From Opitutaceae bacterium (GTDB taxonomy: Bacteria; Verrucomicrobiota; Verrucomicrobiia; Opitutales; Opitutaceae): DNA of 64,000 nt. Each line of letters begins with the position of its first letter. Within the stretch, counting starts at the first letter, position 1. The notes under the pieces were generated by a model. It did no database searches and was not told where the DNA came from. It saw only the letters and a program-made list of their open reading frames with translations. Shown here piece after piece: positions 1 through 12,581 of this stretch. Position numbers and translations under genes: made by a program. Location of the stretch: positions 1 to 64,000 of the forward strand of contig NZNM01000081.1 of NCBI GenBank assembly GCA_002694885.1, written 5' to 3'.

Positions 1-1
1 A

Positions 2-787
2 AAGGTTCCAGCCTGGCTAGACTGGGAGCAGTGGGTTGGGCCAGCTCCGGAAGTTGGGTACAATGCGAACATTGCTCCTTTTGCGTGGCGGGGCTGGTGG
101 GACTACGGCACTGGCGCTTTGGGCGATATGGCCTGCCACATAATGGATATGGCCTATTGGGCGGTTGATCCTGGGGCTCCCACGAGCGTAAAAGCCCAGC
201 AGGCGGGGGCGACTAAAATTTCTCCTCCAATCAATTCCAAGGTGGTATGGGAATTCCCATCGAGCCAGTACACCTCGAATCGAGGCTTCAAGTATAACTG
301 GTACGATGGCTACTTGAATGCCGACTTCGATCGGGAAACCTGGTCGCTGATCAAGCACAGCCAAGAATACAATCATCCCGATGAGAAAGTATTAGGCGGC
401 ATGCCATTCCAGCAATTTGGAAGTGTTGTCATCGGGGAAGCTGGAAAGCTTATCTTCAATCGCCAGCATAGTCGATGGTTCGTACACTCCAACAACGATA
501 TCGATGGATTTGATTGGCCGGATAAGACCATAGCGCGGGCTTGGGACGAAGATCCGTATAAGGAATGGTATGACGCGGTGACGGGCCGTGTCGAGCAGGC
601 CGAATCGCATTTCGGTCAAGCGGGACCGTTCACGGAAACGGTGCTTCTCGGAGTAATCGCTCAGCAAAATCCGGACACTGAATTGGAATGGGATTCCAAG
701 GGTATGAAGTTCAAGGGTCGTGCCGATTTAGACGCGCTAGTCAAGCGCGACTACGCCAAGGGCTGGAAGTACAAGATTGATAGCTAG
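2..787 (+). CDS. Gfo/Idh/MocA family oxidoreductase, C-terminal part (5' end outside window)
   Basis: The frame is already open at the first bases of the window, so the gene begins upstream. About 261 residues are visible, followed by a TAG stop. The segment WWDYGTGALGDMACHIMD and the preceding WVGPAPEVGYN are typical of the C-terminal alpha/beta domain of secreted Gfo/Idh/MocA proteins, which are abundant in Planctomycetes and Verrucomicrobia. The N-terminal NAD(P)-binding Rossmann fold and any Tat signal lie outside. The family oxidises or reduces sugars and related polyols using NAD(P), and the substrate cannot be told from this part. A strong intrinsic terminator follows directly. The first in-frame ATG, at 119, is internal to the conserved domain and is not the true start. 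Confidence 0.85.
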   Translation, partial: KVPAWLDWEQWVGPAPEVGYNANIAPFAWRGWWDYGTGALGDMACHIMDMAYWAVDPGAPTSVKAQQAGATKISPPINSKVVWEFPSSQYTSNRGFKYNWYDGYLNADFDRETWSLIKHSQEYNHPDEKVLGGMPFQQFGSVVIGEAGKLIFNRQHSRWFVHSNNDIDGFDWPDKTIARAWDEDPYKEWYDAVTGRVEQAESHFGQAGPFTETVLLGVIAQQNPDTELEWDSKGMKFKGRADLDALVKRDYAKGWKYKIDS

Positions 788-814
788 GCGTACTAGAACT
801 AGAAATTTCAAGAT

Positions 815-844
815 CGTGGCTTTCGAGCCACGCCTTTTTTTTTT
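815..844 (+). terminator. Rho-independent terminator after the oxidoreductase gene
   Basis: A perfect 7-bp stem (CGTGGCT / AGCCACG) is closed by a UUCG tetraloop and followed by CC and a run of ten T. It lies 28 bases after the stop codon of the Gfo/Idh/MocA gene. Confidence 0.9.
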
Positions 845-1032
845 GGCGGATGGTATTAGAGAGGTTTCGTGTGGAATTCTTTTCAGGGATAGCCGGCGGC
901 TCTCGGGCATTTTGACGGGCTCCGTCTCAAAGCCAGTTGTTTAGGGAGATAGGGGCTTGGGCCGGGCACCCAGGTAAGCACGCGAGCCGCGTGCGATCCC
1001 AGGTTGCGACAAGAGCTTCCTGAGGGCGTCCG

Positions 1033-1287
1033 TTAAATCAGCTCGCCGATCGTTCCGGTGCTGGCGTTATTGAACGAATTCGTTTCGACACCGTACTTTT
1101 GCAGCAGCGTCAGGTGAAGGTTGGGAAGGGGCGTGTGTTCGTCGCAGATGACGTGTCCGAGAGGCTTCAGGCTGCCGCCAACTCTGCTGGCGAGCACGAT
1201 GGGGAGGTTTTCCTTCTTGTGGCCGTTCCCGTCCTTCATGCTGGAGCCGTAAAGCACAGTCGAGTTGTCGAGGAGACTTTTTCTACA
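1033..1287 (-). pseudogene. Remnant of a DUF1552 protein (C-terminal ~85 residues only)
   Basis: The minus strand encodes LLDNSTVLYGSSMKDGNGH, then ENLPIVLASRVGGSLKPLGH and LLQKYGVETNSF, ending in TAA at 1033. This matches the conserved C-terminal end of DUF1552 proteins, secreted Planctomycete/Verrucomicrobia proteins of roughly 400-450 residues. Upstream of the LLDNS block the similarity stops and the frame runs into unrelated sequence, with an ATG at 1365 that belongs to no DUF1552 start. Over 80 percent of the gene, including the Tat signal region, is therefore missing. DUF1552 genes usually sit beside DUF1592/DUF1587/DUF1595 genes, and none is present here. The call rests on remembered family motifs, not on a search. 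Confidence 0.7.
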
Positions 1288-1299
1288 AAGTGAAGGGGC

Positions 1300-1542
1300 G
1301 TGAACTATCTTCCCATGCCGAATGTCAGCCCGTCGCTTGCGGCCAGGGTCTACTGGGAGTCTCATGATGAATTCGAGCTGAAGCGCAAGAGCCAGTGGTT
1401 TGGATCTGTAATCACGCCATATGACGAATTGAAAGTGGAGAGGAATAGCTTGCTGATAGGATCGTTTTTAGGTGGCGAGGAAACTGAAATAAAGGACAGT
1501 ACGGTCATCCAAGTTGGAGCGAACTATTTAGCTGGAAATTAG
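1300..1542 (+). CDS. Unrecognised small ORF next to the DUF1552 remnant
   Basis: An open frame of 80 residues begins with ATG at 1300 and ends with TAG at 1540-1542. It overlaps the region where DUF1552 similarity ends, so its first 15 to 20 residues may be antisense to debris. The later part (WFGSVITPYDEL, GSFLGGEETEI) has ordinary protein-like composition, but I recognise no family. There is no signal peptide and no clear ribosome-binding site. It may be the tail of another broken gene fused to the remnant by a deletion. The interval 1543-1700 holds nothing recognisable. Confidence 0.25.
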   Translation: MNYLPMPNVSPSLAARVYWESHDEFELKRKSQWFGSVITPYDELKVERNSLLIGSFLGGEETEIKDSTVIQVGANYLAGN

Positions 1543-1700
1543 GAAAAAACGGAGAGTCGAATCGACTGTTTTTAGCGATTCGAAAAATAGTAGAGCTAGG
1601 AAAGCATTGGAGGACTTTGAACCATTTATAGACAGGCGGATCTGGATTTGGAGAGTGGAAAGATCTTGAGCAGGCGGAAGATCAAGCAAGCATAGGAGAT

Positions 1701-2477
1701 GTGAAAAAGGTATCGTTATCTAGCTTGGCAACAATCACGAGTCGTTTAAATGGGCATCCGCTCTATTCAGCTCTCAGCGATTTAGAGGATCTAAGAGTCT
1801 TCATGGAGCACCATGTCTACTCTGTATGGGATTTCATGTCACTCGCTAAAAAGCTGCAAGAACATGTGGCGCCGACTCGACAGCCTTGGATGCCGAACAG
1901 AGATGGTTCGCTTCGAAGGTTTATAAACGAGGTCATTCTTGAAGAAGAGTGCGACGAAGGTACCAACGAGGGAGAGTACCTAAGCCACTTTGAAATATAC
2001 TTGCGGTCTATGGCAGAAGTGGGAGCTGATACGCAACCTTGTAGCCAATTCCTTGATGCGGTTGCAGCAGGGGGCGTAGCGTCTGCGTTAAATATGGATT
2101 GCCTTCCTGGCCCATCCAAAGCCTTCACGAAAGCGACATTCGAAGTAATAGAAACTGGCAAACCGCACGAAGTGGCTGCGGCCTTCGCGTTGGGTCGGGA
2201 AAGCGTAATACCGAGCATGTTTAGAGACATTCTGGAAAAGTCAGAAGTTTTGGAAGAGTCGGCACCGACGTTCCACTTTTACCTGAGCAGGCATGTTGAG
2301 TTGGATGAGGGGCATCATGGACCCATGGCAATGAGGCTGTTGAACGAACTATGCGACGGTGATCCTCGCAAGGTTACTGAGGCGATCGAGTCAGCGGAAA
2401 TAGCGATAGAAAATCGATTGGGTCTATGGGACGGGGTGCTTAAGGCGATCCGAAGCAAGAAGTTGTTGTCCGTCTAA
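1701..2477 (+). CDS. DUF3050 family protein (haem-oxygenase-like fold)
   Basis: This 258-residue soluble protein shows the DUF3050 signatures LRVFMEHHVYSVWDFMSL (about residues 31-48), INEVILEEECDEG, SHFEIYLRSM and, near the C-terminus, FYLSRHVELDEGHHGPMA. The proposed start is GTG at 1701, with AGGAG only two bases upstream; this spacing is unusually short, so the true start may lie slightly elsewhere. The E/H and H-x3-D/E-x4-H groups resemble the ligand pattern of haem-oxygenase-like diiron oxidases. The family's biochemical role is not known to me, and a metal-oxidase activity is only inference. No partner gene is adjacent: a DUF1552 fragment lies upstream and a secreted propeller downstream. 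Confidence 0.8.
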   Translation: MKKVSLSSLATITSRLNGHPLYSALSDLEDLRVFMEHHVYSVWDFMSLAKKLQEHVAPTRQPWMPNRDGSLRRFINEVILEEECDEGTNEGEYLSHFEIYLRSMAEVGADTQPCSQFLDAVAAGGVASALNMDCLPGPSKAFTKATFEVIETGKPHEVAAAFALGRESVIPSMFRDILEKSEVLEESAPTFHFYLSRHVELDEGHHGPMAMRLLNELCDGDPRKVTEAIESAEIAIENRLGLWDGVLKAIRSKKLLSV

Positions 2478-2579
2478 TTTAGGGATAGCCGAAAAGAGGA
2501 TCTACAATAAGATAAAAAAAGGAATTTGTAGCTCTTTAGATTTGGTAATCGAATCTTAACAGCGTAGCGTTCTCGCCTA

Positions 2580-3899
2580 ATGGCTCGATTCTTCTTATCC
2601 CTCACCCCACCGGCCGGTATCGGGTATTGCGTTGTCCTAATGCTGTCCTATTCCGCCAGCTCCTCTGATTGGCCGCAGTGGCGCGGTCCAGAGCGCGATG
2701 GCGTTTGGCTGGAAAATGGAATCGTTTCTGAATTCGCTTCCGGGCAGCTGCCCGCCAAATGGAGCGCTCCGGTCGGATCTGGCTATTCTGGTCCCACGGT
2801 GGCCAATGGGCGCGTCTATTTGACGAGCTACTTGGGTAAGCCGAAGCAGGTCGAGCAAGTGCATTGCGTGGATCAGGCTACGGGCAAGGAAGTCTGGAAG
2901 CATGTTTACGATTGCGAGTACATGGATATTGGATACCCTCTGGGTCCTCGAGCAGCGGTAGCTATCTCCGATGGCAAAGCCTACGCTTTGGGTACCATGG
3001 GGCATTTGCACTGCTTGGATGCGGCCACCGGCGAAGTGATTTGGAAAATTAATTTCGAGGACGATTTCAACGCCGCCATACCGGTATGGGGAATTACTGC
3101 TTCGCCTTTGGTCGATGATGATCGTGTTTATGTTCAGGTTGGCGGGCAACCGGATGCCGTGGTTATGGCTTTTGACAAGAACACGGGTTATGAAGAGTGG
3201 CGTTCTCTTGATGGAGGAGCTTCCTACTCGGCGCCAAAGTTCATCGAACAGAATGGCAAGCAATTGCTCCTCGTGTGGACAGGCGATTGGTTCGCGGCTT
3301 TAGAAACGAAATCGGGCGAGCCAGTATGGAAAGAGAAGTTCAACCGAGCCAAAGGGGTGATCAATGTGGCTGATCCAGTGGTAGACAAGTCGACTGGGCG
3401 GATTTTTCTGACCTCTTTTTACGATGGGTCCTACCTCTATAAACTGGATACGGATAAAATGGATGTCGATTTGCTCTGGAAGCGCAAAGGGCGAAGCGAA
3501 ATTCACACGGATGCGTTGCACAGTATTATCATGACCTCCGTGATTTTAGGAGACTACGTTTACGGACTCGATAGTTATGGGGCTATGCGCTGCCTCGATC
3601 TGCAGAACGGGGACCGTGTTTGGGAAGATCAGACTTTGGTGGACGAGGGTCGATGGGCCACGGCCTTCTTCGTGCAGAATGGGGAGCAGACCTGGATGTT
3701 TACCGAAAAGGGGGAGCTCGTGATCGGCAGCCTTTCCCCGAGCGGATTTAAGAGCCTTTCCAAAACAAAGCTGATTGAACCGACAACTTTCCTGCCAAGG
3801 CGCAACGACAACATTCTTTGGTCGCATCCAGCCTATGCGGACAAGCACATATTCGTTCGCAATGACAAGCACTTGATAAGCGTGGATTTGTCGCTCTAG
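2580..3899 (+). CDS. Secreted PQQ-type beta-propeller protein
   Basis: This 439-residue protein has an N-terminal hydrophobic segment (about residues 10-25) that looks like a signal peptide, followed by DWPQWRGPERDG, the hallmark opening of verrucomicrobial/planctomycetal PQQ-like propellers. Repeated blades carry the pattern of a conserved W after G-x-x-x-W, for example DQATGKEVWKH, DAATGEVIWK, DKNTGYEEWR and DLQNGDRVWED. The family (BamB/PQQ_2-like) forms an eight-bladed propeller in the periplasm. Most members are not proven quinoproteins, and no cofactor site can be assigned here. It stands alone, and a convergent photolyase gene follows. ATG at 2580 has no obvious Shine-Dalgarno sequence. 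Confidence 0.85.
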   Translation: MARFFLSLTPPAGIGYCVVLMLSYSASSSDWPQWRGPERDGVWLENGIVSEFASGQLPAKWSAPVGSGYSGPTVANGRVYLTSYLGKPKQVEQVHCVDQATGKEVWKHVYDCEYMDIGYPLGPRAAVAISDGKAYALGTMGHLHCLDAATGEVIWKINFEDDFNAAIPVWGITASPLVDDDRVYVQVGGQPDAVVMAFDKNTGYEEWRSLDGGASYSAPKFIEQNGKQLLLVWTGDWFAALETKSGEPVWKEKFNRAKGVINVADPVVDKSTGRIFLTSFYDGSYLYKLDTDKMDVDLLWKRKGRSEIHTDALHSIIMTSVILGDYVYGLDSYGAMRCLDLQNGDRVWEDQTLVDEGRWATAFFVQNGEQTWMFTEKGELVIGSLSPSGFKSLSKTKLIEPTTFLPRRNDNILWSHPAYADKHIFVRNDKHLISVDLSL

Positions 3900-3941
3900 A
3901 ATTGTCGGCAGGGCGAGTCCTTCGACACTCATCGGACATTG

Positions 3942-3961
3942 CCGACCTGATGTCGGGTTTT
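3942..3961 (+). terminator. Possible weak terminator between convergent genes
   Basis: A 5-bp stem (CCGAC / GTCGG) with a CTGAT loop is followed by G and four T, about 40 bases after the propeller gene. The T-tract is short. GTCGGCA at 3904-3910 could instead pair with TGCCGAC at 3940-3946. Confidence 0.35.
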
Positions 3962-3980
3962 GCTCGTCGGGTTCCGCAAT

Positions 3981-5489
3981 TTATCGGCGAGCAGGCTTCC
4001 GGGGCCTGTTTGTTGCCCGTTTGCGACTGCCGTGTAGCTGGCGAACTTTCTCGCTATCGCTCTTGTAGTTCGCGTTCGTCCTGATTTCCCGAAATCGTTG
4101 TCTGGCTAACCTGACGGCCTCCGCGTGGTCAACTATGGGATGGGGATAATCTACTGTCGGCCGTAGAAAGTTGTCAGTTCCCCAATCGTGTATTTCTGAA
4201 ATTGAAAGTCTGGCGACCTCCGGAACCCATTGGCGAATAAAGGTCGCCTTAGGATCATGATCCATTCCTTGTTTCACTGGATTGTAAATACGCAAAGTAT
4301 TGATTCCCGTGGTGCCGCTTTGCATCTGCAGTTGGGAAATGTGAATTCCAGGTTCGTAGTCAATGAACGTTTGGGCGAGAAAGTCTTTGATGAGCCGCCA
4401 GTCGAGCCAGAGATCGTAGGCGGCGAATGAGACGAGCATCGCTCGCATCCTGAAGTTAATCCATCCGTGGGCTCTAAGGTAGCGCATGCAAGCATCGACG
4501 AAAGGGTATCCCGTTTGCCCTGATCGCCATGCCTCGAGCAAGTTCGCGTTGGGTGTTCTAGAGCGAAGATTATCAAGGCTTCGGTTGAAGCAGCTAAACT
4601 CGATTTGAGGCTCCATCTCGAGCTTTTGAGTGAAGTGGCAGCGCCAATGCATTCGGGAAAGGAATGAGGTCAAGGACCTGGGCCGTGGTCCTTCGCTGGA
4701 AAGCCCGCCTTTTTCGGCCTTCAGTTCGGCGACTCGAGCCCGTGTAGCTTGGACGACAACTTTAGATGAAATGCAACCCCAGGCGAGATAGGGACTTAGG
4801 CGAGAGCAGTGATGGGGAGCGGAGATGGGACTGCTCATGAGTTTTTCGTAGCCTTTGCTGCGGGTCTCGAGAAAAGAATCGAGAAGCTCGTGGGCTGCCT
4901 TCTCTCCTCCGAAAAGCTTATTTTCGTATCCAAATTCCTGATTAATTTCCAAGTCTGTGCTACTTGGCAATGAAACTCCGGTAATTCGCAGGTCGGGCGC
5001 CTTGGTGGATTTCGGGATTGGAATTATTTGAGCATTCATTCGTTCGTTCCATTTTCGCGACCATCCATCCCGGTTTCGAAGTCCTCGGATGACACCATTT
5101 TGCGGATACTCAATTAATTCGATACCCTGTTCTCTTGTCCAATTTCGCACGCACCGGTCTCGCTCGAAGGAAATGGCGTTTCCTGTTTCTTCGTGACAGT
5201 GAATGACGATTTTTCCGTAGGCCGACAACAAGTGAGTGAAGGCGGAAACAACATCTTCGTTCAAAACTAGGAGGGGGAGCCCCATTTTGCGGAGCGAATC
5301 TCTAAGCTCATTGAGCGCTTCAGAAATGAAATTCCAGTGTAACGAGCTACAATCAGGCGCTCTTAGCATCCGACGTTCAACAAGGAATAATGGCAGAACG
5401 GGGCCGCTTTTGCATGCATTTGATAACGCGGCATGGTCGAGTGTTCGAAGATCCCGCTTGAACCAGACAATCTGTATCGTATGCGACAC
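3981..5489 (-). CDS. Cryptochrome/DNA photolyase family protein
   Basis: This 502-residue flavoprotein has the usual order: an N-terminal alpha/beta antenna domain (IQIVWFKRDLRTLDHAAL near the start) and then the all-helical FAD domain (GYPFVDACMRYLRAHGWIN, MRAMLVSF, RIYNPVKQGMDHDP, FIRQWVPE). Photolyases repair UV-induced pyrimidine dimers with blue light through a reduced FAD, while cryptochromes in the same family act as sensors; the sequence alone does not separate these here. GTG at 5489 is chosen as the start because the antenna domain begins immediately after it and the upstream gene stops two bases before. The open frame continues further upstream but there overlaps the neighbour. The tail (GSRKRATNRPRKP) is strongly basic. 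It is almost certainly co-transcribed and translationally coupled with the upstream flavoprotein gene. Confidence 0.9.
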   Translation of the reverse strand: MSHTIQIVWFKRDLRTLDHAALSNACKSGPVLPLFLVERRMLRAPDCSSLHWNFISEALNELRDSLRKMGLPLLVLNEDVVSAFTHLLSAYGKIVIHCHEETGNAISFERDRCVRNWTREQGIELIEYPQNGVIRGLRNRDGWSRKWNERMNAQIIPIPKSTKAPDLRITGVSLPSSTDLEINQEFGYENKLFGGEKAAHELLDSFLETRSKGYEKLMSSPISAPHHCSRLSPYLAWGCISSKVVVQATRARVAELKAEKGGLSSEGPRPRSLTSFLSRMHWRCHFTQKLEMEPQIEFSCFNRSLDNLRSRTPNANLLEAWRSGQTGYPFVDACMRYLRAHGWINFRMRAMLVSFAAYDLWLDWRLIKDFLAQTFIDYEPGIHISQLQMQSGTTGINTLRIYNPVKQGMDHDPKATFIRQWVPEVARLSISEIHDWGTDNFLRPTVDYPHPIVDHAEAVRLARQRFREIRTNANYKSDSEKVRQLHGSRKRATNRPRKPARR

Positions 5490-5491
5490 TA

Positions 5492-6727
5492 CTAATATGA
5501 AAGCCCCGCGGTGAGGGGGGATTGAATTCGCTCCCAGATCGCTGGCAGGCGTTTTTTGAACGAGAAGAAGCCTTTTTGAGCGTGCGGAAATAGATCGGCT
5601 TCCCACCATCTTCGAAACAAACGAAGTTTGGATCCGCTAGAGGCTATGCTAGCCTCGATCTCGGCCCACTCATCATTCCAATATCCAACGTAAGGCTGAG
5701 GACAGAGGATAGTCTCGAGCTGATGATCGCTAATCCAGTCGACAATTGCATTCGCGTGATTTTGACAAACAAGGACAGTCGAGATTCCCAGGTTTTCGAG
5801 TCGACCAACGGTAGCATCCATCGACGAACGTCTGAAGTCGACGACTCTTTGGCTGGCACCGGCACTGGCGTATCGGTTTTCGGGGAAAAGGGCTAAGGCG
5901 GTTTGAGGCCTATTTTCGCCGAAGTCAGGTATGCTAGCATCGTCGTCGGTAAAGATGAATCCGTATTTTAATGGTCGAACGATTTCGATGGGAGCGGCTT
6001 GGATGCGGGGCGACAACGTTTGGATTGGGTCTTCAGTGAGTGCCACGGCTGTGGAAGCGAGTTGAGTCGGCGCGAAGCGATTTTCGGTGTATTTCGCGAT
6101 ATTGCTACGGCGGGCCAAATAGGTTTTCCCCTTCGTGTGCAAGCCAGCCACCCATCTCCAACTGAGCGTATTGCTTGCCACGTCGCCATCTAGAAGATGG
6201 GACAAGAAGAAATGGGCTCCAGCCTGCCATGGCAGTTTTAGGGTGAAAATCCAAATGCTGGCAAACCACATGCGAGCGTGGTTGTGCAGGTAACCGGTTT
6301 CAACGAGCTCTTTTACCCAGCTGTCGAAACAGTCAATTCCAGTCCTGCCGCTCTCCGCAGTGGCGATACCTCGAGCGAGAGAGTCGTCCCTAAGGACTAA
6401 ATTTAGATCGCGTCGATACTGATTCCAGATAGCCCGATGGTTTTCCAGGTATCCTTTCCAGTAGACCCTCCAAAATAACTCTTCCAGGAACTTGCGGCAT
6501 TGTCGCTCGGAGTGTTTCGATAGTGCGGCCCGGGCGCACTCGGCTTCGTTCAAAAGACCGATTCGAATGTAGGGTGAAAGGCCGGAGACCTTCGAGTTAT
6601 CATTTCGCCCATAGTCGTAATTGCGACATTTATGATATTCCAGGCCGGCACGAGGGCAGAAACGGTCAAGCTGTTCAAGGGCAGCGGATCTGGTAGCCAA
6701 CGCTGATTCTCCGTTCCATACAGTCAC
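5492..6727 (-). CDS. Photolyase-like FAD-binding protein with apparently permuted domain order
   Basis: This protein has 411 residues. The N-terminal half (about residues 15-225) is a photolyase/cryptochrome FAD-binding helical domain: FCPRAGLEYHKCRNYDYG, ELFWRVYWKGYLE, TGIDCFDSWVKEL, TGYLHNHARMWFAS, WRWVAGLHTKGKTYLAR. The C-terminal half (about 235-411) reads like a Rossmann-type alpha/beta domain and ends in HAQKGFFSFKKRLP, which resembles the end of a photolyase antenna domain. The order would then be the reverse of classical photolyases. Similar FAD-first proteins exist in other bacteria to my recollection; their substrate is not established for me. It starts at GTG 6727 and stops two bases before the next photolyase gene. 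Repair or light sensing is inferred from the FAD domain only. Confidence 0.8.
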   Translation of the reverse strand: MTVWNGESALATRSAALEQLDRFCPRAGLEYHKCRNYDYGRNDNSKVSGLSPYIRIGLLNEAECARAALSKHSERQCRKFLEELFWRVYWKGYLENHRAIWNQYRRDLNLVLRDDSLARGIATAESGRTGIDCFDSWVKELVETGYLHNHARMWFASIWIFTLKLPWQAGAHFFLSHLLDGDVASNTLSWRWVAGLHTKGKTYLARRSNIAKYTENRFAPTQLASTAVALTEDPIQTLSPRIQAAPIEIVRPLKYGFIFTDDDASIPDFGENRPQTALALFPENRYASAGASQRVVDFRRSSMDATVGRLENLGISTVLVCQNHANAIVDWISDHQLETILCPQPYVGYWNDEWAEIEASIASSGSKLRLFRRWWEADLFPHAQKGFFSFKKRLPAIWERIQSPLTAGLSY

Positions 6728-6915
6728 TTCTAGGAGAAAATCCAGTTAGTGTAGAGGGGCCAATTTGAAAATTTGCTAGGCGAGGAATTGAATAGAATTT
6801 GGGATTATCTCGCTCGAAAAGTTTTTGTCAGAAGGCTCTGTCTGGCTCAATTCAGGTGTGTCCACTCTGGGCAATGATCTATTTGCGAGCCTGGACCTGT
6901 CTGATTTAGGGAAAC

Positions 6916-9105
6916 TTGACGAAAACACCGTTGTGTGAGAATATTTGTTATCTTCGTCGTCGACCCATTTATCCCCGAATCGTGAGTTTTATCCCCGACA
7001 GAACGGTACTATCCAACATAGCCCCTTGGCTGGCGAGTTTGACTTTCCTTTCAGTGTCTATTCAACTTGTTCAAGCAGAGGAAGTTGCGCTGCAGGAGGA
7101 AGCTTTATGGGCCTTTAAGCCGCTTTCCAATCCGAATAGGCCGGAAGTCGAGACGGAAGAATGGGTACGCAACCCGATTGACGCGTTTATTCTTTCGAAA
7201 CTTGAGAAATCGGGCCTCGAACCCACATCAGAAGCCGATAGGCAAACGCTTATTCGCAGAGCCTCATTTGACTTGATCGGTCTGCCGCCGACTCCGGATG
7301 AGGTCGCCGACTTCGTAAATGACCCCCGTTCCGATGCCTATGAGCGACTGATCGATCGGCTGCTCGATTCGCCGCGCTATGGCGAGCGGTATGCCAGGCA
7401 TTGGCTGGACTTAGTTCGCTACGCCGACTCGGATGGATACAAAGCGGACCAGCTTAGGCCTAATGCTTGGCGTTATCGTGACTATGTCATTGAGTCATTC
7501 AATGAGGATAAGCCTTATTCGCGCTTCGTAGAGGAGCAGATAGCGGGCGATGAACTGTATCCGGATAGTGATGCTGCTAAAATGGCGACCGGCTATTTAA
7601 GATTATGGCCATATGAGGACAACCAGCCCGATATGGGACGACATTGGGAGGCGATTCTGAATGACATGACGGATGTTACGGGAGATGTATTTCTCGGCCT
7701 TAGCATGAAGTGCGCTCGTTGCCATGACCACAAATTCGATCCGATCTCCCAGAAAGACTATTATAAACTGCAATCCTTCTTCGCTGCTTTGTCGCCTTGG
7801 GAAGAAGTCTACTTGGGCGGTGAGGATGCTGAAAAGGCTTACCAGAAGCAGTTGTCTCGATGGGAAGAGGCGACTGTAGAACTGAGAGCGGAGATTGAGT
7901 TTATCGAATCGGCTTCTTTGAAGATAGGTTGGGATGCCGCTTTCGCAAAACTGCCGCCCTATGTGCAGGATATCGTGCTTAAGAATGAACGCACTCCTTA
8001 CGAAGAGCAGCTAGCTCGCTTCGCCGAGAAAATGATCGGCTGGCGGTCGAACAAGGACCTGCAAAAGAACATAGCTAAAGAGGATTTAGAAGAGTGGAAA
8101 GCGCTTACGTCGCAGCTTGCCGAATACGATAAAATCCGACCAATGGAGCGGGAGCGAGTGGCTTCAGTTCGTGATGTCGGTAAGAGAGCTCCAAAAGTAT
8201 TTGTGGAATCCAAAGGGAAGAAGGCCGAAGTTGATCCCGGTTATTTGGCGATTCTCGGTTTGGAAGATCCCGAGATAGAGCCGGTACCCGAGAATCCGAA
8301 TACAACTGGCAGGCGAGCGGCTTTGGCCGATTGGCTAACCGAAGGGTCTAACCAACTAACTACTCGGGTAATGGCTAATCGCTTGTGGCAGTGGCATTTC
8401 GGGCAGGGGATCGTAGCGTCTAGTAATGATTTCGGTTATTTGGGGGACCGGCCGAGCCATCCCGAATTGCTAGATTGGCTGGCTGTGCGATTTGTGGAGG
8501 AAGGTTGGAGCCTAAAAGCCATGCATCGTTTGATCATGACCTCGTCAACCTATCGTCAGGGATCGGTCAATCATAATAAACTCGCGGAACGGGTCGACGC
8601 CGATACCCGCTTGCTTTGGCGTATGCCCGTTAGACGAATGGATGCGGAACAACTGCGGGACTCGATGCTATTCGTCGGTGGCGATATGGATTTGGCGATG
8701 GGGGGTCCTGGGGTTTCTGAAGAAGATTCGTCCCGGCGTTCCATCTACGTATTGAATAAGCGAAACAAGCTTCGGACCATGATGAACAAGTTCGATACTC
8801 CCGATTTGCATAATAGCTGTCACATGCGTGACGTGACGACAACCGCTCTGCAGGCCTTGTCGCTGATGAACGGGGAATGGTCACTTACCCGAGCGGAATC
8901 GTTTGCTGAGCGACTATTGAAAATCGAATCAGACGGCGTCGAGAAGCGGATTGTCGCTGCTTACGAAATTGCTCTAGGCCGGACGCCGGAAGTGGAGGAG
9001 ATTCAATTGGCGCAGAGCTTTATAGAAGAGCCAAGCTCGCCGGATTCTTGGGTCGATCTCTGTCACGTATTGCTGAATACGAACGAATTTATATACATCA
9101 ACTAA
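6916..9105 (+). CDS. DUF1549/DUF1553 secreted protein with CxxCH motif
   Basis: This protein of about 729 residues contains DUF1549 (DAFILSKLEKSGLEPTSEAD, RRASFDLIGLPPTPDEV, YGERYARHWLDLVRYADSDG) and DUF1553 in its C-terminal half (LADWLTEGSNQLTTRVMANR, WQWHFGQGIVASSNDFG). The motif CARCHDHKFDP is a CxxCH sequence that could carry c-type haem. The N-terminal PSCyt1 cytochrome domain found in many relatives is absent. The start is uncertain: TTG 6916, preceded by TAGGGAAAC, gives a long leader before a hydrophobic segment, while GTG at 6982 would give a more normal signal peptide. These genes are nearly always paired with a DUF1501 gene, as here. The role is unknown; export to the periplasm is inferred. 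Confidence 0.85.
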   Translation: MTKTPLCENICYLRRRPIYPRIVSFIPDRTVLSNIAPWLASLTFLSVSIQLVQAEEVALQEEALWAFKPLSNPNRPEVETEEWVRNPIDAFILSKLEKSGLEPTSEADRQTLIRRASFDLIGLPPTPDEVADFVNDPRSDAYERLIDRLLDSPRYGERYARHWLDLVRYADSDGYKADQLRPNAWRYRDYVIESFNEDKPYSRFVEEQIAGDELYPDSDAAKMATGYLRLWPYEDNQPDMGRHWEAILNDMTDVTGDVFLGLSMKCARCHDHKFDPISQKDYYKLQSFFAALSPWEEVYLGGEDAEKAYQKQLSRWEEATVELRAEIEFIESASLKIGWDAAFAKLPPYVQDIVLKNERTPYEEQLARFAEKMIGWRSNKDLQKNIAKEDLEEWKALTSQLAEYDKIRPMERERVASVRDVGKRAPKVFVESKGKKAEVDPGYLAILGLEDPEIEPVPENPNTTGRRAALADWLTEGSNQLTTRVMANRLWQWHFGQGIVASSNDFGYLGDRPSHPELLDWLAVRFVEEGWSLKAMHRLIMTSSTYRQGSVNHNKLAERVDADTRLLWRMPVRRMDAEQLRDSMLFVGGDMDLAMGGPGVSEEDSSRRSIYVLNKRNKLRTMMNKFDTPDLHNSCHMRDVTTTALQALSLMNGEWSLTRAESFAERLLKIESDGVEKRIVAAYEIALGRTPEVEEIQLAQSFIEEPSSPDSWVDLCHVLLNTNEFIYIN

Positions 9106-9121
9106 CCCGAGGCGCAGTTCA

Positions 9122-10570
9122 GTGAAGTTCTACCGAGACCGTCGAAATGATATGATACCGCACAGGGAAGCCCCCGTTTCCAGGAGGGACTTTATTATGC
9201 GAGCCGGTGGCGGCTTTTCGGGTCTAGCGCTGGCGGGAATGCTAGGCTTAGACAAGGCTTTTGCGGCCCCGCCCAATCCTCTCAGAGCCAAAGTGGGGCA
9301 CTATTCGGGAGCGGCAAAACAGGTGATATTCCTTTTCATGGAAGGTGGTCCTAGTCACCTCGATCTTTTTGATCCCAAGCCCTTGCTAAATGAACTGCAT
9401 GGAGAGACGCTTCCCAAGAGTTTCAAGGAGCCGATTACAGCTATGGGCGAACAAGGATCGCCCTTGCTCGGTTCGCCCCGCAAATGGAAACGGCATGGTC
9501 AAAGCGGATTGTGGGTATCGGATTGGTTTCCTCATATTGCCAAACACGTGGATGACTTGGCAGTGGTTCGATCCTGCTGGGCGGATGGGCTCAATCATGT
9601 TGGATCGGTCTGCCAAATGAATACTGGTTCGATCTTAGGTGGTCGCCCTTCGCTAGGGGCTTGGACTGTTTATGGGCTTGGTTCACTCAACGATAACCTC
9701 CCGTCCTATGTTGTGCTGACCGACCGCGAAAAGATGCCTTTGGGAGGCGTACGCAACTGGGGAACGGGATTCATGCCGGCGACCTATCAGGGGACGCTTT
9801 TCCAGAATGGTTCGACCCCGATTCAGAATCTGGTTCCACCGGAGGGAATGACGGATTCCCGGCAACGCAAGAAGCTGGACATGCTGGCGAAGTTGAACCG
9901 CAAGCATTCTGAAAAGAATGCCTTCGACGACGAATTGGAGGCGAGAATCAACGCATACGAGATGGCTTATCGCATGCAATCGGAAGCTCCTGAAGCTGTG
10001 GATCTATCTCAGGAAAGCGAAAGCACTAGATCGCTTTACGGACTCGATCAGAAGGAAACCGAGGGTTACGGAAGGCAGTGCTTGTTAGCCCGTCGATTGG
10101 TGGAGCGTGGCGTCCGCTTCGTGCAGGTTTACAGTGGTTCCGGCAGCGCCTGGGACACACACGCGAATCACGAAGAGCGGAGCACGGCTTTATGCCGATC
10201 AGTGGATCAACCGATTTCCGGATTGCTGAGCGACTTGAAACAGCGCGGAATGTTGGAGGATACGCTTGTGGTTTGGGGTGGCGAGTTCGGTCGGACGCCG
10301 ATGAGCGAAAAAGGCAATGGCCGTGATCACAATCCCTTTGGATTTACCATGTGGATGGCCGGCGGCGGCGTTCAAGGGGGACAAACGATTGGGTCCACGG
10401 ATGAACTAGGGCTTTGGGCTGTGAGCGAGAGAGCGCATGTGCACGATATTCATGCGTCCATCCTTCATTCTATTGGACTGGATCATATGGCTCTCGAGTT
10501 CAAAACGGGTGGCCGCCTAGAACGTCCTACAGTCAATACCGGCAACGTGATTCGCAAGCTGTTTGCCTAG
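9122..10570 (+). CDS. DUF1501 protein (sulfatase/alkaline-phosphatase-like fold), Tat-exported
   Basis: This protein of about 482 residues begins with a twin-arginine signal (VSRRDFIMRAGGG followed by a hydrophobic stretch and AFAAPP). The body carries DUF1501 features: FLFMEGGPSHLDLFDPKP, GAWTVYGLGSLNDNLPSYVV, RGVRFVQVYSG, WDTHANHE, DTLVVWGGEFGRTP and GRDHNPFGFTMWMAGGG. The Asp/His/Glu clusters resemble the metal sites of the alkaline phosphatase superfamily. The gene follows the DUF1549/DUF1553 gene by 16 bases, the standard pairing, so both probably act together in the periplasm on an unknown substrate. GTG 9122 or ATG 9152 could be the start. Its end overlaps the convergent antiporter pseudogene by 4 bases. 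Confidence 0.88.
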   Translation: MKFYRDRRNDMIPHREAPVSRRDFIMRAGGGFSGLALAGMLGLDKAFAAPPNPLRAKVGHYSGAAKQVIFLFMEGGPSHLDLFDPKPLLNELHGETLPKSFKEPITAMGEQGSPLLGSPRKWKRHGQSGLWVSDWFPHIAKHVDDLAVVRSCWADGLNHVGSVCQMNTGSILGGRPSLGAWTVYGLGSLNDNLPSYVVLTDREKMPLGGVRNWGTGFMPATYQGTLFQNGSTPIQNLVPPEGMTDSRQRKKLDMLAKLNRKHSEKNAFDDELEARINAYEMAYRMQSEAPEAVDLSQESESTRSLYGLDQKETEGYGRQCLLARRLVERGVRFVQVYSGSGSAWDTHANHEERSTALCRSVDQPISGLLSDLKQRGMLEDTLVVWGGEFGRTPMSEKGNGRDHNPFGFTMWMAGGGVQGGQTIGSTDELGLWAVSERAHVHDIHASILHSIGLDHMALEFKTGGRLERPTVNTGNVIRKLFA

Positions 10571-11751
10571 AGAGCTTCGTCTTCTCCCGACTTACGAATC
10601 ACCATGCGGGTGAAAATGGGACCGAAAATTTCGAAGAAGACGGTGCTGCTGATAACGATGGGCAGTAGAGCTTGCCTGTATTCAGGATATTGATTCGAGG
10701 CGACCAAGGCCATTCCGATAGCTACCCCAGCTTGTGGCAAGAGGGCGGCTCCCACCCAACGTTGGGTACGCTTGCTGGCTCCGCTACAGATACTGCCTAA
10801 GCGTCCGCCCGAGTATTTTCCTAGCGACCTTGCGAGGACATAAGCGCTACCTATGATCCGAATCTCCTGAAAGGCCCGAATCTCTAGGGAAGCCCCGGCC
10901 AGGAAGAAAAATATTACCATAAAGGGCCACTCGATGCCTTCAATAGCATGGAATGGGCGGGTATGGTGGCCTGCAAAATTAGCGATGACAGCTCCCATGG
11001 CGATCGCCGCGATCAAGTGCGAAACTTCTCGCCAGATGGCTAAGCCGCCGCACAGGAAAACAATCCCTATGGCCTCTGATAGGATGGGTTCTCCGGATTT
11101 TATTCGACCAGTCAAAAAGGCTGCTGGCAGTCCTATCAACAGGCCCAGTAAAAGGGAGCCGCCAATTTCCCTGGCAGCGACCACGGCGAACTAGGACTCG
11201 CCTCCATTGCCACTGAGGGATCTAACGATTGCAATTCCAAATCAAAAAAATCAGGGCCCAAATGTCGTCTAAAGCCACTATGGATAACAAGAGGCTGCTG
11301 AACTTGCCACGGGCTTTTGTCTCGGCGACGACATCCAGCACAGCTGCGGGAGCAGTGGCGGAGGCAATGCAGCCCAGTATGACAGCCATTTCGATACTTA
11401 CGTGGAGGGCGATCAGACTGAGGCTGACGAATAAAGCGGTCATGACGGCAGCGCTGATCGATATCCAGAAAACCTTTCGCTTGTAGCCCTGAAGCGATTT
11501 GCGCGTTAGTTTTCCCCCGAGTAGGAATCCCAGCATCAGCAGCGTCGTATGTGCTATAATTTCGAAACGGTCCTCGAATACATGGGGATCAGATCGAGCC
11601 CCTGCTTGCCGATAACGGCTCCGAAGACGAGGAGTAGCGTCACTCTTAGTAGAAAAGTGCGTTGGGCCAAATTGGATACGACGAGACCGATTAGAAGAAT
11701 GCCGTCGATTTTGATCAACAACTGGTAGGAACTATCCATGTTTCTCAACAA
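10567..11751 (-). pseudogene. Disrupted cation:proton antiporter (CPA-type Na+/H+ exchanger)
   Basis: Three consecutive fragments in different frames together make one membrane antiporter of about 390 residues. Fragment 1 (from 11751) ends LLVFGAVIGKQGLDLIPMY. It continues after a single-base loss near 11577 as FEDRFEIIAHTTLLMLGF. Fragment 2 contains CIASATAPAAVLDVV and ends at ALDDIWAL. Restoring one T in the A-run at 11244-11250 and one base at 11237-11238 continues the protein as IFFDLGIAIVRSLSGNGGES, after which a TAG at 11191-11193 still interrupts it. Fragment 3 (to 10567) supplies the remaining transmembrane helices. At least three indels and one nonsense codon argue for a decaying gene rather than one sequencing error. 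The intact family exchanges Na+ or K+ for H+ across the inner membrane. Confidence 0.8.
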
Positions 11752-11819
11752 AGACTATTGGAGGAAACGAGTCCCGGCAAGATCCAATCGAAGAATTGCA
11801 AGGGCAAGTCGACCGGCCC

Positions 11820-12581
11820 CTAGATGATCCGTTCTGGAGGGTAGGCAACTACATCAATGCTTTCAGAATACAATAGCGAGGGGTGACGCTCTCCGACTTG
11901 GAAACGGTCAAGGAGGGAATTTTTCCGAATGTCGATTTCGGCGTTTTGGAGCGGCCATTTCCGGTGTTGGACTTCAGTGCGGTAGAGGTGACCCTTGTTG
12001 CTCTGGCAGTAGAGGCAATAGCGCTCAGTGCACCATTCTTCGAATGAATTTTTGCCGAAGGCCGTGTCACTGGGTTCGGGTCGGTACCTTGCATCGAATC
12101 GGTCTTCTCCAATTTGGCTCGTGTAGTGGAAAACGCCCTCTTTCGCCTCGATTTTTACATCACCATGACGGTAGGGCAGGTTAAAAAATGTCCTGGCAGC
12201 CCAATCGGCGAATCGGGATGGGACATCCAGGCTGAAAAACCAAACTCCTGGCTTTCCATCGCGGATGACATAGGTCCGAACATTGATTTCGGGGAAATTC
12301 GAAATCGCGGAAATGGTTGGGAAGTAGCGCAAAGATACACCCTTCATATCGAAAGGGACGATCGCTATCCAGGCCTTGCCGTCGAATAGATCGATTTCTA
12401 GGCTCTCAGGGATGCGCTGCCTTAAGTCTTGATAATCGATTTCCCAATGGATGAAGGCGAGGTTCAGCCATTGTTGGCGCAATAGCCATGATCCATTTGG
12501 CAAGGGCCAAGGCCTATGGTGGGTGTTTGTCAAAGCTGGATGCATCTGGGAGTCAATGGATCTGTCCCTGTTTGATATCAT
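11820..12581 (-). CDS. DUF2071 (YqjF-like) protein
   Basis: This 253-residue protein matches DUF2071: an initial RQQWLNLAFIHWEIDYQDLR, then GKAWIAIVPFDMKGVSLR, FPEINVRTYVIRDGKPGVWF and FFNLPYRHGDVKI. The start is set at ATG 12581, which overlaps the stop of the upstream flavin oxidoreductase in an ATGA arrangement; ATG 12545 is an alternative. The open frame extends much further upstream but lies antisense-like inside the neighbour. A paired motif CTERYCLYCQSN near residue 185 could bind metal, but this is speculation. The function of the family is not known. Coupling to the FAD enzyme suggests a shared pathway, and DUF2071 genes are often near photolyase genes. Confidence 0.8.
   Translation of the reverse strand: MISNRDRSIDSQMHPALTNTHHRPWPLPNGSWLLRQQWLNLAFIHWEIDYQDLRQRIPESLEIDLFDGKAWIAIVPFDMKGVSLRYFPTISAISNFPEINVRTYVIRDGKPGVWFFSLDVPSRFADWAARTFFNLPYRHGDVKIEAKEGVFHYTSQIGEDRFDARYRPEPSDTAFGKNSFEEWCTERYCLYCQSNKGHLYRTEVQHRKWPLQNAEIDIRKNSLLDRFQVGERHPSLLYSESIDVVAYPPERII

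What the first reader, a model, noticed from the sequence alone, without database searches (positions are those of the whole stretch)
3981..6727. Adjacent photolyase-type genes, one with apparently permuted domains
Two cryptochrome/photolyase-family genes lie two bases apart on the same strand. The downstream one has the classical antenna-then-FAD order; the upstream one has the FAD domain first and an antenna-like Rossmann domain last, ending in HAQKGFFSFKKRLP. Coupled expression suggests that they act together, for example as two repair specificities or a repair enzyme plus sensor.
Basis: partly seen in the sequence, partly recalled or inferred. Interest (0 to 1): 0.6.

Follow-up and report, generated by a model that had tools for sequence, protein, structure and literature searches.

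The report
Inverted photolyase coupled to divergent photolyase-like gene
A bacterium carries, as one tight two-gene unit, a light-powered DNA-repair enzyme whose two domains are in reversed order (a type already described) and a normally ordered relative that has lost the usual repair-site residues; the two travel together in many bacteria, which makes the second, unstudied protein the interesting one.

Summary
On the minus strand, 5492-6727 encodes an N-terminal FAD domain plus a C-terminal Rossmann-like domain, and 3981-5489 a classically ordered photolyase homologue, with 2 bases between them. The permuted topology is not new: published NewPHL/SPL photolyases have it. The upstream protein fits that type, though no characterised NewPHL sequence was available for direct comparison. 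The permuted protein keeps the E. coli CPD-site residues tested, in all 33 representatives (E83, W86, N149, M153, N186, W190, W192). The classical-looking partner has lost most of them in all 33 of its subfamily (Arg, Phe, Ala, His, Met; proximal triad Trp replaced), so it is probably not a CPD photolyase. That subfamily is fused to uracil-DNA glycosylase in Deinococcus and sits beside DUF2256 in 22 of 46 genomes. Linkage is real: 19 of 23 partner-bearing genomes in the window's phylum also carry the upstream type (13 of 365 others), and adjacent pairs recur in several lineages with ATGA or 1-base overlaps. The C-terminal domain matches the antenna domain in strand/helix order and profile register, but sequence support is moderate. 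Best reading: a light-dependent repair operon, one ssDNA-type CPD photolyase plus a divergent photolyase-family partner of unknown substrate.

The parts
5492..6727 (-). Upstream gene: inverted-topology (NewPHL/SPL-type) photolyase, 411 aa, GTG start, TAG stop
   Evidence: ORF and translation; Pfam; relatives confirmed in 592 loci, the best 80 full-length; AlphaFold2 model pLDDT 93.5, pTM 0.92
6038..6727 (-). N-terminal catalytic FAD domain of the upstream protein (residues 1-230)
   Evidence: PF03441 E 3e-22; VIA-align Z 17.8, rmsd 2.5, 211 residues to Arabidopsis cryptochrome 3; Z about 17 to class I photolyases
6152..6481 (-). Stretch with retained CPD-site residues E83, W86, R87, H148, N149, M153, W167, D180, D182, N186, W190, W192 (E. 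coli E274, W277, R278, H340, N341, M345, W359, D372, D374, N378, W382, W384)
   Evidence: Alignment with E. coli PhrB; 33 of 33 representatives identical at each of these positions
5519..5965 (-). C-terminal antenna-like Rossmann domain of the upstream protein (residues 255-403)
   Evidence: Order of strands and helices in the model follows that of the antenna domain in the downstream model; profile alignment 273-371 to 29-128 in the same register, probability 56%
5487..5494 (-). Gene junction TAG-TA-GTG (stop, two bases, start)
   Evidence: Sequence; junction geometry compared with other pairs
3981..5489 (-). Downstream gene: classically ordered photolyase homologue with a divergent active site, 502 aa
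   Evidence: Pfam; AlphaFold2 model pLDDT 83.8, Foldseek to 4u63, 1qnf, 1owm; monophyletic subfamily, support 100/100
5100..5489 (-). N-terminal antenna domain of the downstream protein (residues 1-130)
   Evidence: PF00875 E 3e-21
4032..4922 (-). FAD domain of the downstream protein (residues 190-486)
   Evidence: PF03441 E 3e-62
4317..4361 (-). Signature DYEPGIHxxQxQMQS (residues 377-391), with H383 at the E. coli N378 position, L387 at W382 and M389 at W384
   Evidence: Family alignment A1 and residue table

Best explanation
The two genes form one translationally coupled operon for light-dependent repair of UV-damaged DNA. The upstream protein is a CPD photolyase of the inverted-topology class (NewPHL/SPL). 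Its FAD domain comes first and does the electron transfer to the dimer; the C-terminal Rossmann domain takes the place of the N-terminal antenna domain. The downstream protein has the classical fold and probably binds FAD, but its lesion pocket has been rebuilt (R279, F346, A350, M389), the residue beside the flavin N5 is His, and the proximal tryptophan of the photoreduction chain is gone. It is therefore probably not a CPD photolyase; most likely it is a DNA-acting partner with another lesion or another step in the same response. Shown: order, tight spacing, recurrence, residue retention and loss. Inferred: co-transcription, CPD activity and single-strand preference of the upstream protein (from its class), FAD binding and DNA repair by the downstream one, and any physical contact between them.
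For: Domain content. High-confidence upstream model with a photolyase FAD domain. Tested CPD-site residues kept in 33/33 upstream-type sequences; E274, N341, M345, N378, W382 and W384 equivalents lost in 33/33 of the downstream subfamily. Co-occurrence in 388 genomes of the window's phylum: 19 of 23 downstream-bearing genomes carry the upstream type against 13 of 365 others, odds ratio 129 (not corrected for kinship). Adjacency: 13 of 80 retrieved loci within 6 kb, 11 on the same strand; ATGA overlap in L043, L050, L061, L067; 1-base overlap in two genomes of the window's genus; close pairs in a second family and in Persicobacter. Pairs of the second subtype form matching clades in both halves of the tree. 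Downstream family fused to uracil-DNA glycosylase in Deinococcus. [quoted passage not shown]
Against: No biochemistry. In most genomes of the phylum with the full-length upstream type and the partner, the two genes lie on different contigs or far apart. Characterised NewPHL sequences could not be fetched, so class membership is argued from topology and residues. The uracil-DNA glycosylase fusion was seen in Deinococcus only. A folded model does not show FAD binding by the downstream protein.
Confidence: 0.6

Rival explanations
1. The downstream protein is a cryptochrome: a light sensor that regulates the response, while the upstream protein does all the repair.
For: It has lost the CPD-binding residues and the proximal tryptophan, and its N5-side residue differs from the photolyase Asn; such changes are typical of cryptochromes (general knowledge).
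Against: Fused to uracil-DNA glycosylase in Deinococcus. No long C-terminal signalling extension in the window protein (502 aa). No obvious regulator gene next to the pair in the window.
Confidence: 0.25
2. The downstream protein is a photolyase for (6-4) photoproducts, so the pair covers CPD and (6-4) lesions.
For: A CPD plus (6-4) pair would explain co-occurrence; a published cyanobacterial operon pairs two photolyases and is UV-B inducible (PMC9649867).
Against: It lacks the two active-site histidines of eukaryotic (6-4) photolyases at the N341/M345 positions (Phe and Ala instead; the His positions are general knowledge). It has no DPRP domain, and the same genome already has a DPRP-family prokaryotic (6-4)-type gene on another contig.
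Confidence: 0.15
3. The two proteins are merely co-regulated members of a light-stress gene set and do not act together.
For: Gene order differs between lineages (up-dn and dn-DUF2256-up), and in many genomes the two are apart. DUF2256 is adjacent to the downstream gene in 22 of 46 genomes.
Against: Overlapping stop/start codons in several lineages and congruent clades of one pair subtype suggest balanced co-production.
Confidence: 0.4
4. The C-terminal domain of the upstream protein is an unrelated Rossmann domain, not a displaced antenna domain.
For: Best single-family signals are weak: PF00875 in 3 of 78 members, best E 0.012; the first, shallower profile comparison gave 4%; the divergent subtype alone gives 1-4%.
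Against: Same order of strands and helices as the antenna domain; the deeper profile comparison gives 56% over 99 columns in exactly that register, above the best of 150 unrelated ORFs (score 32.9 against 21.2; the control used single sequences).
Confidence: 0.3

Closest known systems
NewPHL / short photolyase-like (SPL) proteins (Dinoroseobacter shibae, Methylobacterium mesophilicum; Prochlorococcus Phr7)
   Same: FAD domain first, short alpha/beta domain last; no Fe-S cysteines; common in Alphaproteobacteria, as found here
   Different: Activity of the window protein untested; coupling to a divergent photolyase homologue was not found described in the open-access library
Phr4/Phr5 and Phr6 reverse-domain photolyases of marine Synechococcus and Cyanobium
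   Same: Reverse domain order
   Different: They carry four Fe-S cysteines (PMC9426592); the window protein has no such cysteines after its FAD core, whereas a Deinococcus relative (L148) has a Cys-rich motif there
Class I CPD photolyase (E. coli PhrB)
   Same: The downstream protein has the same domain order and fold (TM-scores about 0.7-0.8)
   Different: Downstream subfamily lacks E274, N341, M345, N378, W382, W384 equivalents
Two-photolyase UV-B operon of Synechococcus sp. PCC 7335
   Same: Two photolyase-family genes overlapping on one transcript (PMC9649867)
   Different: Its second gene is a PhrSph98/class II-like protein and its first a deoxyribodipyrimidine photo-lyase; no inverted-topology member is described

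Membership tests
NewPHL/SPL (upstream protein) | FAD catalytic domain N-terminal, alpha/beta domain C-terminal | tested here: met
   Pfam and model
NewPHL/SPL (upstream protein) | No Fe-S cysteine cluster (contrast with Phr4/Phr6) | tested here: met
   No Cys in residues 195-260, the region where a Deinococcus relative has CASCPLASGGC
NewPHL/SPL (upstream protein) | CPD-photolyase active-site residues retained | tested here: met
   33/33 at E274, W277, N341, M345, N378, W382, W384 equivalents
NewPHL/SPL (upstream protein) | Groups with characterised NewPHL sequences in a tree | not tested
   Reference sequences (A8LJA9, M7YZC8 and others, named in PMC13274461) were not in reach; relatives from Roseobacter-group genomes are 41-46% identical
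NewPHL/SPL (upstream protein) | Light-dependent CPD repair in single-stranded DNA | not testable with these tools
   Needs an enzyme assay
Phr4/Phr6 Fe-S reverse-domain photolyase (upstream protein) | Four Fe-S cysteines | tested here: not met
   Sequence, residues 195-260
Class I CPD photolyase (downstream protein) | Antenna-then-FAD domain order and fold | tested here: met
Class I CPD photolyase (downstream protein) | CPD-site residues E274, N341, M345, N378, W384 and proximal W382 | tested here: not met
   R279, F346, A350, H383, M389, L387
CRY-DASH (downstream protein) | TIGR02765 curated score | tested here: not met
   150 bits against cut-off 317
Prokaryotic (6-4)/FeS-BCP photolyase (downstream protein) | DPRP domain PF04244 | tested here: not met
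   No PF04244 match up to E 1; the genome's DPRP gene is elsewhere
Bifunctional CPD/(6-4) PhrSph98 type (downstream protein) | Similarity to PhrSph98 | not tested
   Sequence not in reach; described as sister to class II (PMC9649867), whereas the downstream protein groups with class I-like sequences

The most novel reading that the evidence does not exclude
The downstream subfamily is an unrecognised class of photolyase-fold enzyme with its own lesion specificity and flavin environment (His beside N5, no proximal tryptophan), for example acting on UV lesions linked to cytosine deamination, and working in a fixed pair with an inverted-topology single-strand CPD photolyase.
Probability: 0.3. Interest if true: 0.7.

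Novelty: new variant of a known kind. Interest (0 to 1): 0.45.

Why it matters
Inverted-topology photolyases have been proposed as close to the origin of the photolyase/cryptochrome family. A partner that recurs beside them in several lineages, and has swapped out the CPD site, gives a concrete and testable clue to what they do in the cell and points to an uncharacterised photolyase subfamily with genetic links to uracil-DNA glycosylase and DUF2256.

Tried and rejected
PhrSph98 (bifunctional CPD/6-4) as identity of the downstream protein: dropped after reading that it is class II-like, while the window protein groups with class I-like sequences. Vibrio cholerae Cry2 (VC1392) as a named member of the downstream family: could not be tested, sequence not in reach. 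First profile comparison of the C-terminal domain with the antenna domain was negative and only became suggestive with deeper alignments. Phage records hold only distant downstream-type hits. No Rfam match in 1-12000. Pair of the window seen as inherited within its genus: rejected, since the two sister genomes with a pair carry the other subtype.

Full report
Observation. On the minus strand, 5492-6727 encodes 411 aa and 3981-5489 encodes 502 aa; the junction reads TAG-TA-GTG. Pfam finds FAD_binding_7 in the N-terminal half of the upstream protein and both photolyase domains in the classical order in the downstream one. Neighbouring large ORFs on either side are on the plus strand, so the pair is an isolated two-gene unit. 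Local G+C equals that of the window.

The upstream protein. The reverse order is therefore a stable architecture, not a local accident. [quoted passage not shown] PMC9426592), and a reverse-domain Fe-S form in marine Synechococcus. The window protein lacks the Fe-S cysteines. I recall that the original NewPHL report says the C-terminal domain seals the FAD site from solvent; that paper was not held here, so this is memory, not a test.

The C-terminal domain. The model is confident (pLDDT 93.5, pTM 0.92). Its strands and helices from residue 255 follow the same order as the antenna domain in the downstream model, except for the first helix. A profile comparison with 47 C-terminal and 47 antenna sequences aligns residues 273-371 with antenna residues 29-128, probability 56%, in the register that the secondary structure predicts; 150 unrelated ORFs reached at most 21.2 against 32.9, although that control used single sequences. 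A shallower comparison was negative and Pfam sees PF00875 in only 3 of 78 members. I take a displaced antenna-type domain as likely, not shown. The fold search did not cover this domain.

The reversal of roles. Aligned with E. coli PhrB (literature numbering), all 33 upstream-type sequences keep E274, W277, R278, H340, N341, M345, W359, D372, D374, N378, W382 and W384; only the distal W306 is missing. All 33 downstream-subfamily sequences have Arg, Phe, Ala, His and Met at E274, N341, M345, N378 and W384, and none has Trp at W382. The window residues are R279, F346, A350, H383, M389 and L387. A cyanobacterial plasmid homologue (L149) shares the pocket changes but keeps N378 and W382, and branches just outside the subfamily, which suggests that the pocket changed first. 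So the permuted protein looks like the working CPD photolyase, and the classical-looking one like a divergent relative.

What the downstream family does. In Deinococcus gobiensis the family member is one 774-aa frame ending in a uracil-DNA glycosylase domain (E 2e-16), and in Deinococcus sp. KNUC1210 it lies within an 835-aa frame annotated as ung. Several other Deinococcus plasmid hits fall under a uracil-DNA glycosylase annotation. In 22 of 46 genomes a DUF2256 gene lies within 120 bases on the same strand, in several cases between the downstream-type and upstream-type genes. These links favour a role in DNA repair. Cytosine in pyrimidine dimers deaminates readily to uracil (general knowledge), so a glycosylase partner would make sense; that is inference.

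Linkage. In 388 genomes of the window's phylum, 23 carry the downstream subfamily; 19 of these carry an upstream-type gene, against 13 of 365 without it (Fisher, not corrected for kinship). Among the 80 retrieved loci, chosen for similarity to the upstream protein, 13 have the partner within 6 kb. Order varies: upstream-type first with ATGA overlap in four Alphaproteobacteria, partner first in six loci, 1-base overlap in two genomes of the window's own genus, and close pairs in a further family of the phylum and in Persicobacter. The pairs in the window's genus relatives belong to a second, divergent subtype whose two halves form matching clades, so the window's pair was probably assembled separately. 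Of 50 genomes with the upstream type, 27 also have the partner somewhere. Repeated assembly argues for a functional tie, while frequent separation argues against an obligate complex.

The genome has two more photolyase-family genes: a class I-like one on contig C37 and a DPRP-family one on C93. That lowers the chance that the downstream gene is its only (6-4) enzyme.

Verdict. The permuted architecture is a known kind. The recurrent operon with an active-site-divergent partner is the new part; no open-access paper in the library holds both 'photolyase' and 'DUF2256', and none describing such an inverted-topology pair was found. Subscription papers were not searched.

Noticed in passing
L144 (Deinococcus gobiensis plasmid P2) 2938-5259; L165 2279-4783: Photolyase-family protein fused to uracil-DNA glycosylase in one frame; in L144 the annotated ung gene starts inside the photolyase part.
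   Followed up: partly
Genomes, e.g. G403, G407, G413, G422: DUF2256 (about 40 aa, CxxC-type) lies within 120 bases of the downstream-type gene in 22 of 46 genomes; between it and the upstream-type gene in some.
   Followed up: partly
L173 (G000 contig C56) 2845-3407: In the window's own genome DUF2256 sits away from the pair, next to an ORF that looks like TIGR03643 and one that looks like DUF429 (read by eye).
   Followed up: no
L174 (G000 contig C93) 1046-4370: DPRP-family photolyase gene flanked by an SDR-like and an FAD/NAD-oxidoreductase-like ORF on the same strand (read by eye).
   Followed up: no
L148 (Deinococcus wulumuqiensis plasmid) 2803-4269: Inverted-topology photolyase with a Cys-rich motif CASCPLASGGCPF after the FAD core, a candidate Fe-S variant outside cyanobacteria.
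   Followed up: no
L149 (Halotia branconii plasmid) 2998-4554: Photolyase homologue with the altered pocket but intact N378 and W382 equivalents; an intermediate between class I and the downstream subfamily.
   Followed up: partly
window 6916-10570: Two consecutive plus-strand ORFs that look like a planctomycete/verrucomicrobial DUF1549/DUF1553 plus DUF1501 pair (read by eye).
   Followed up: no
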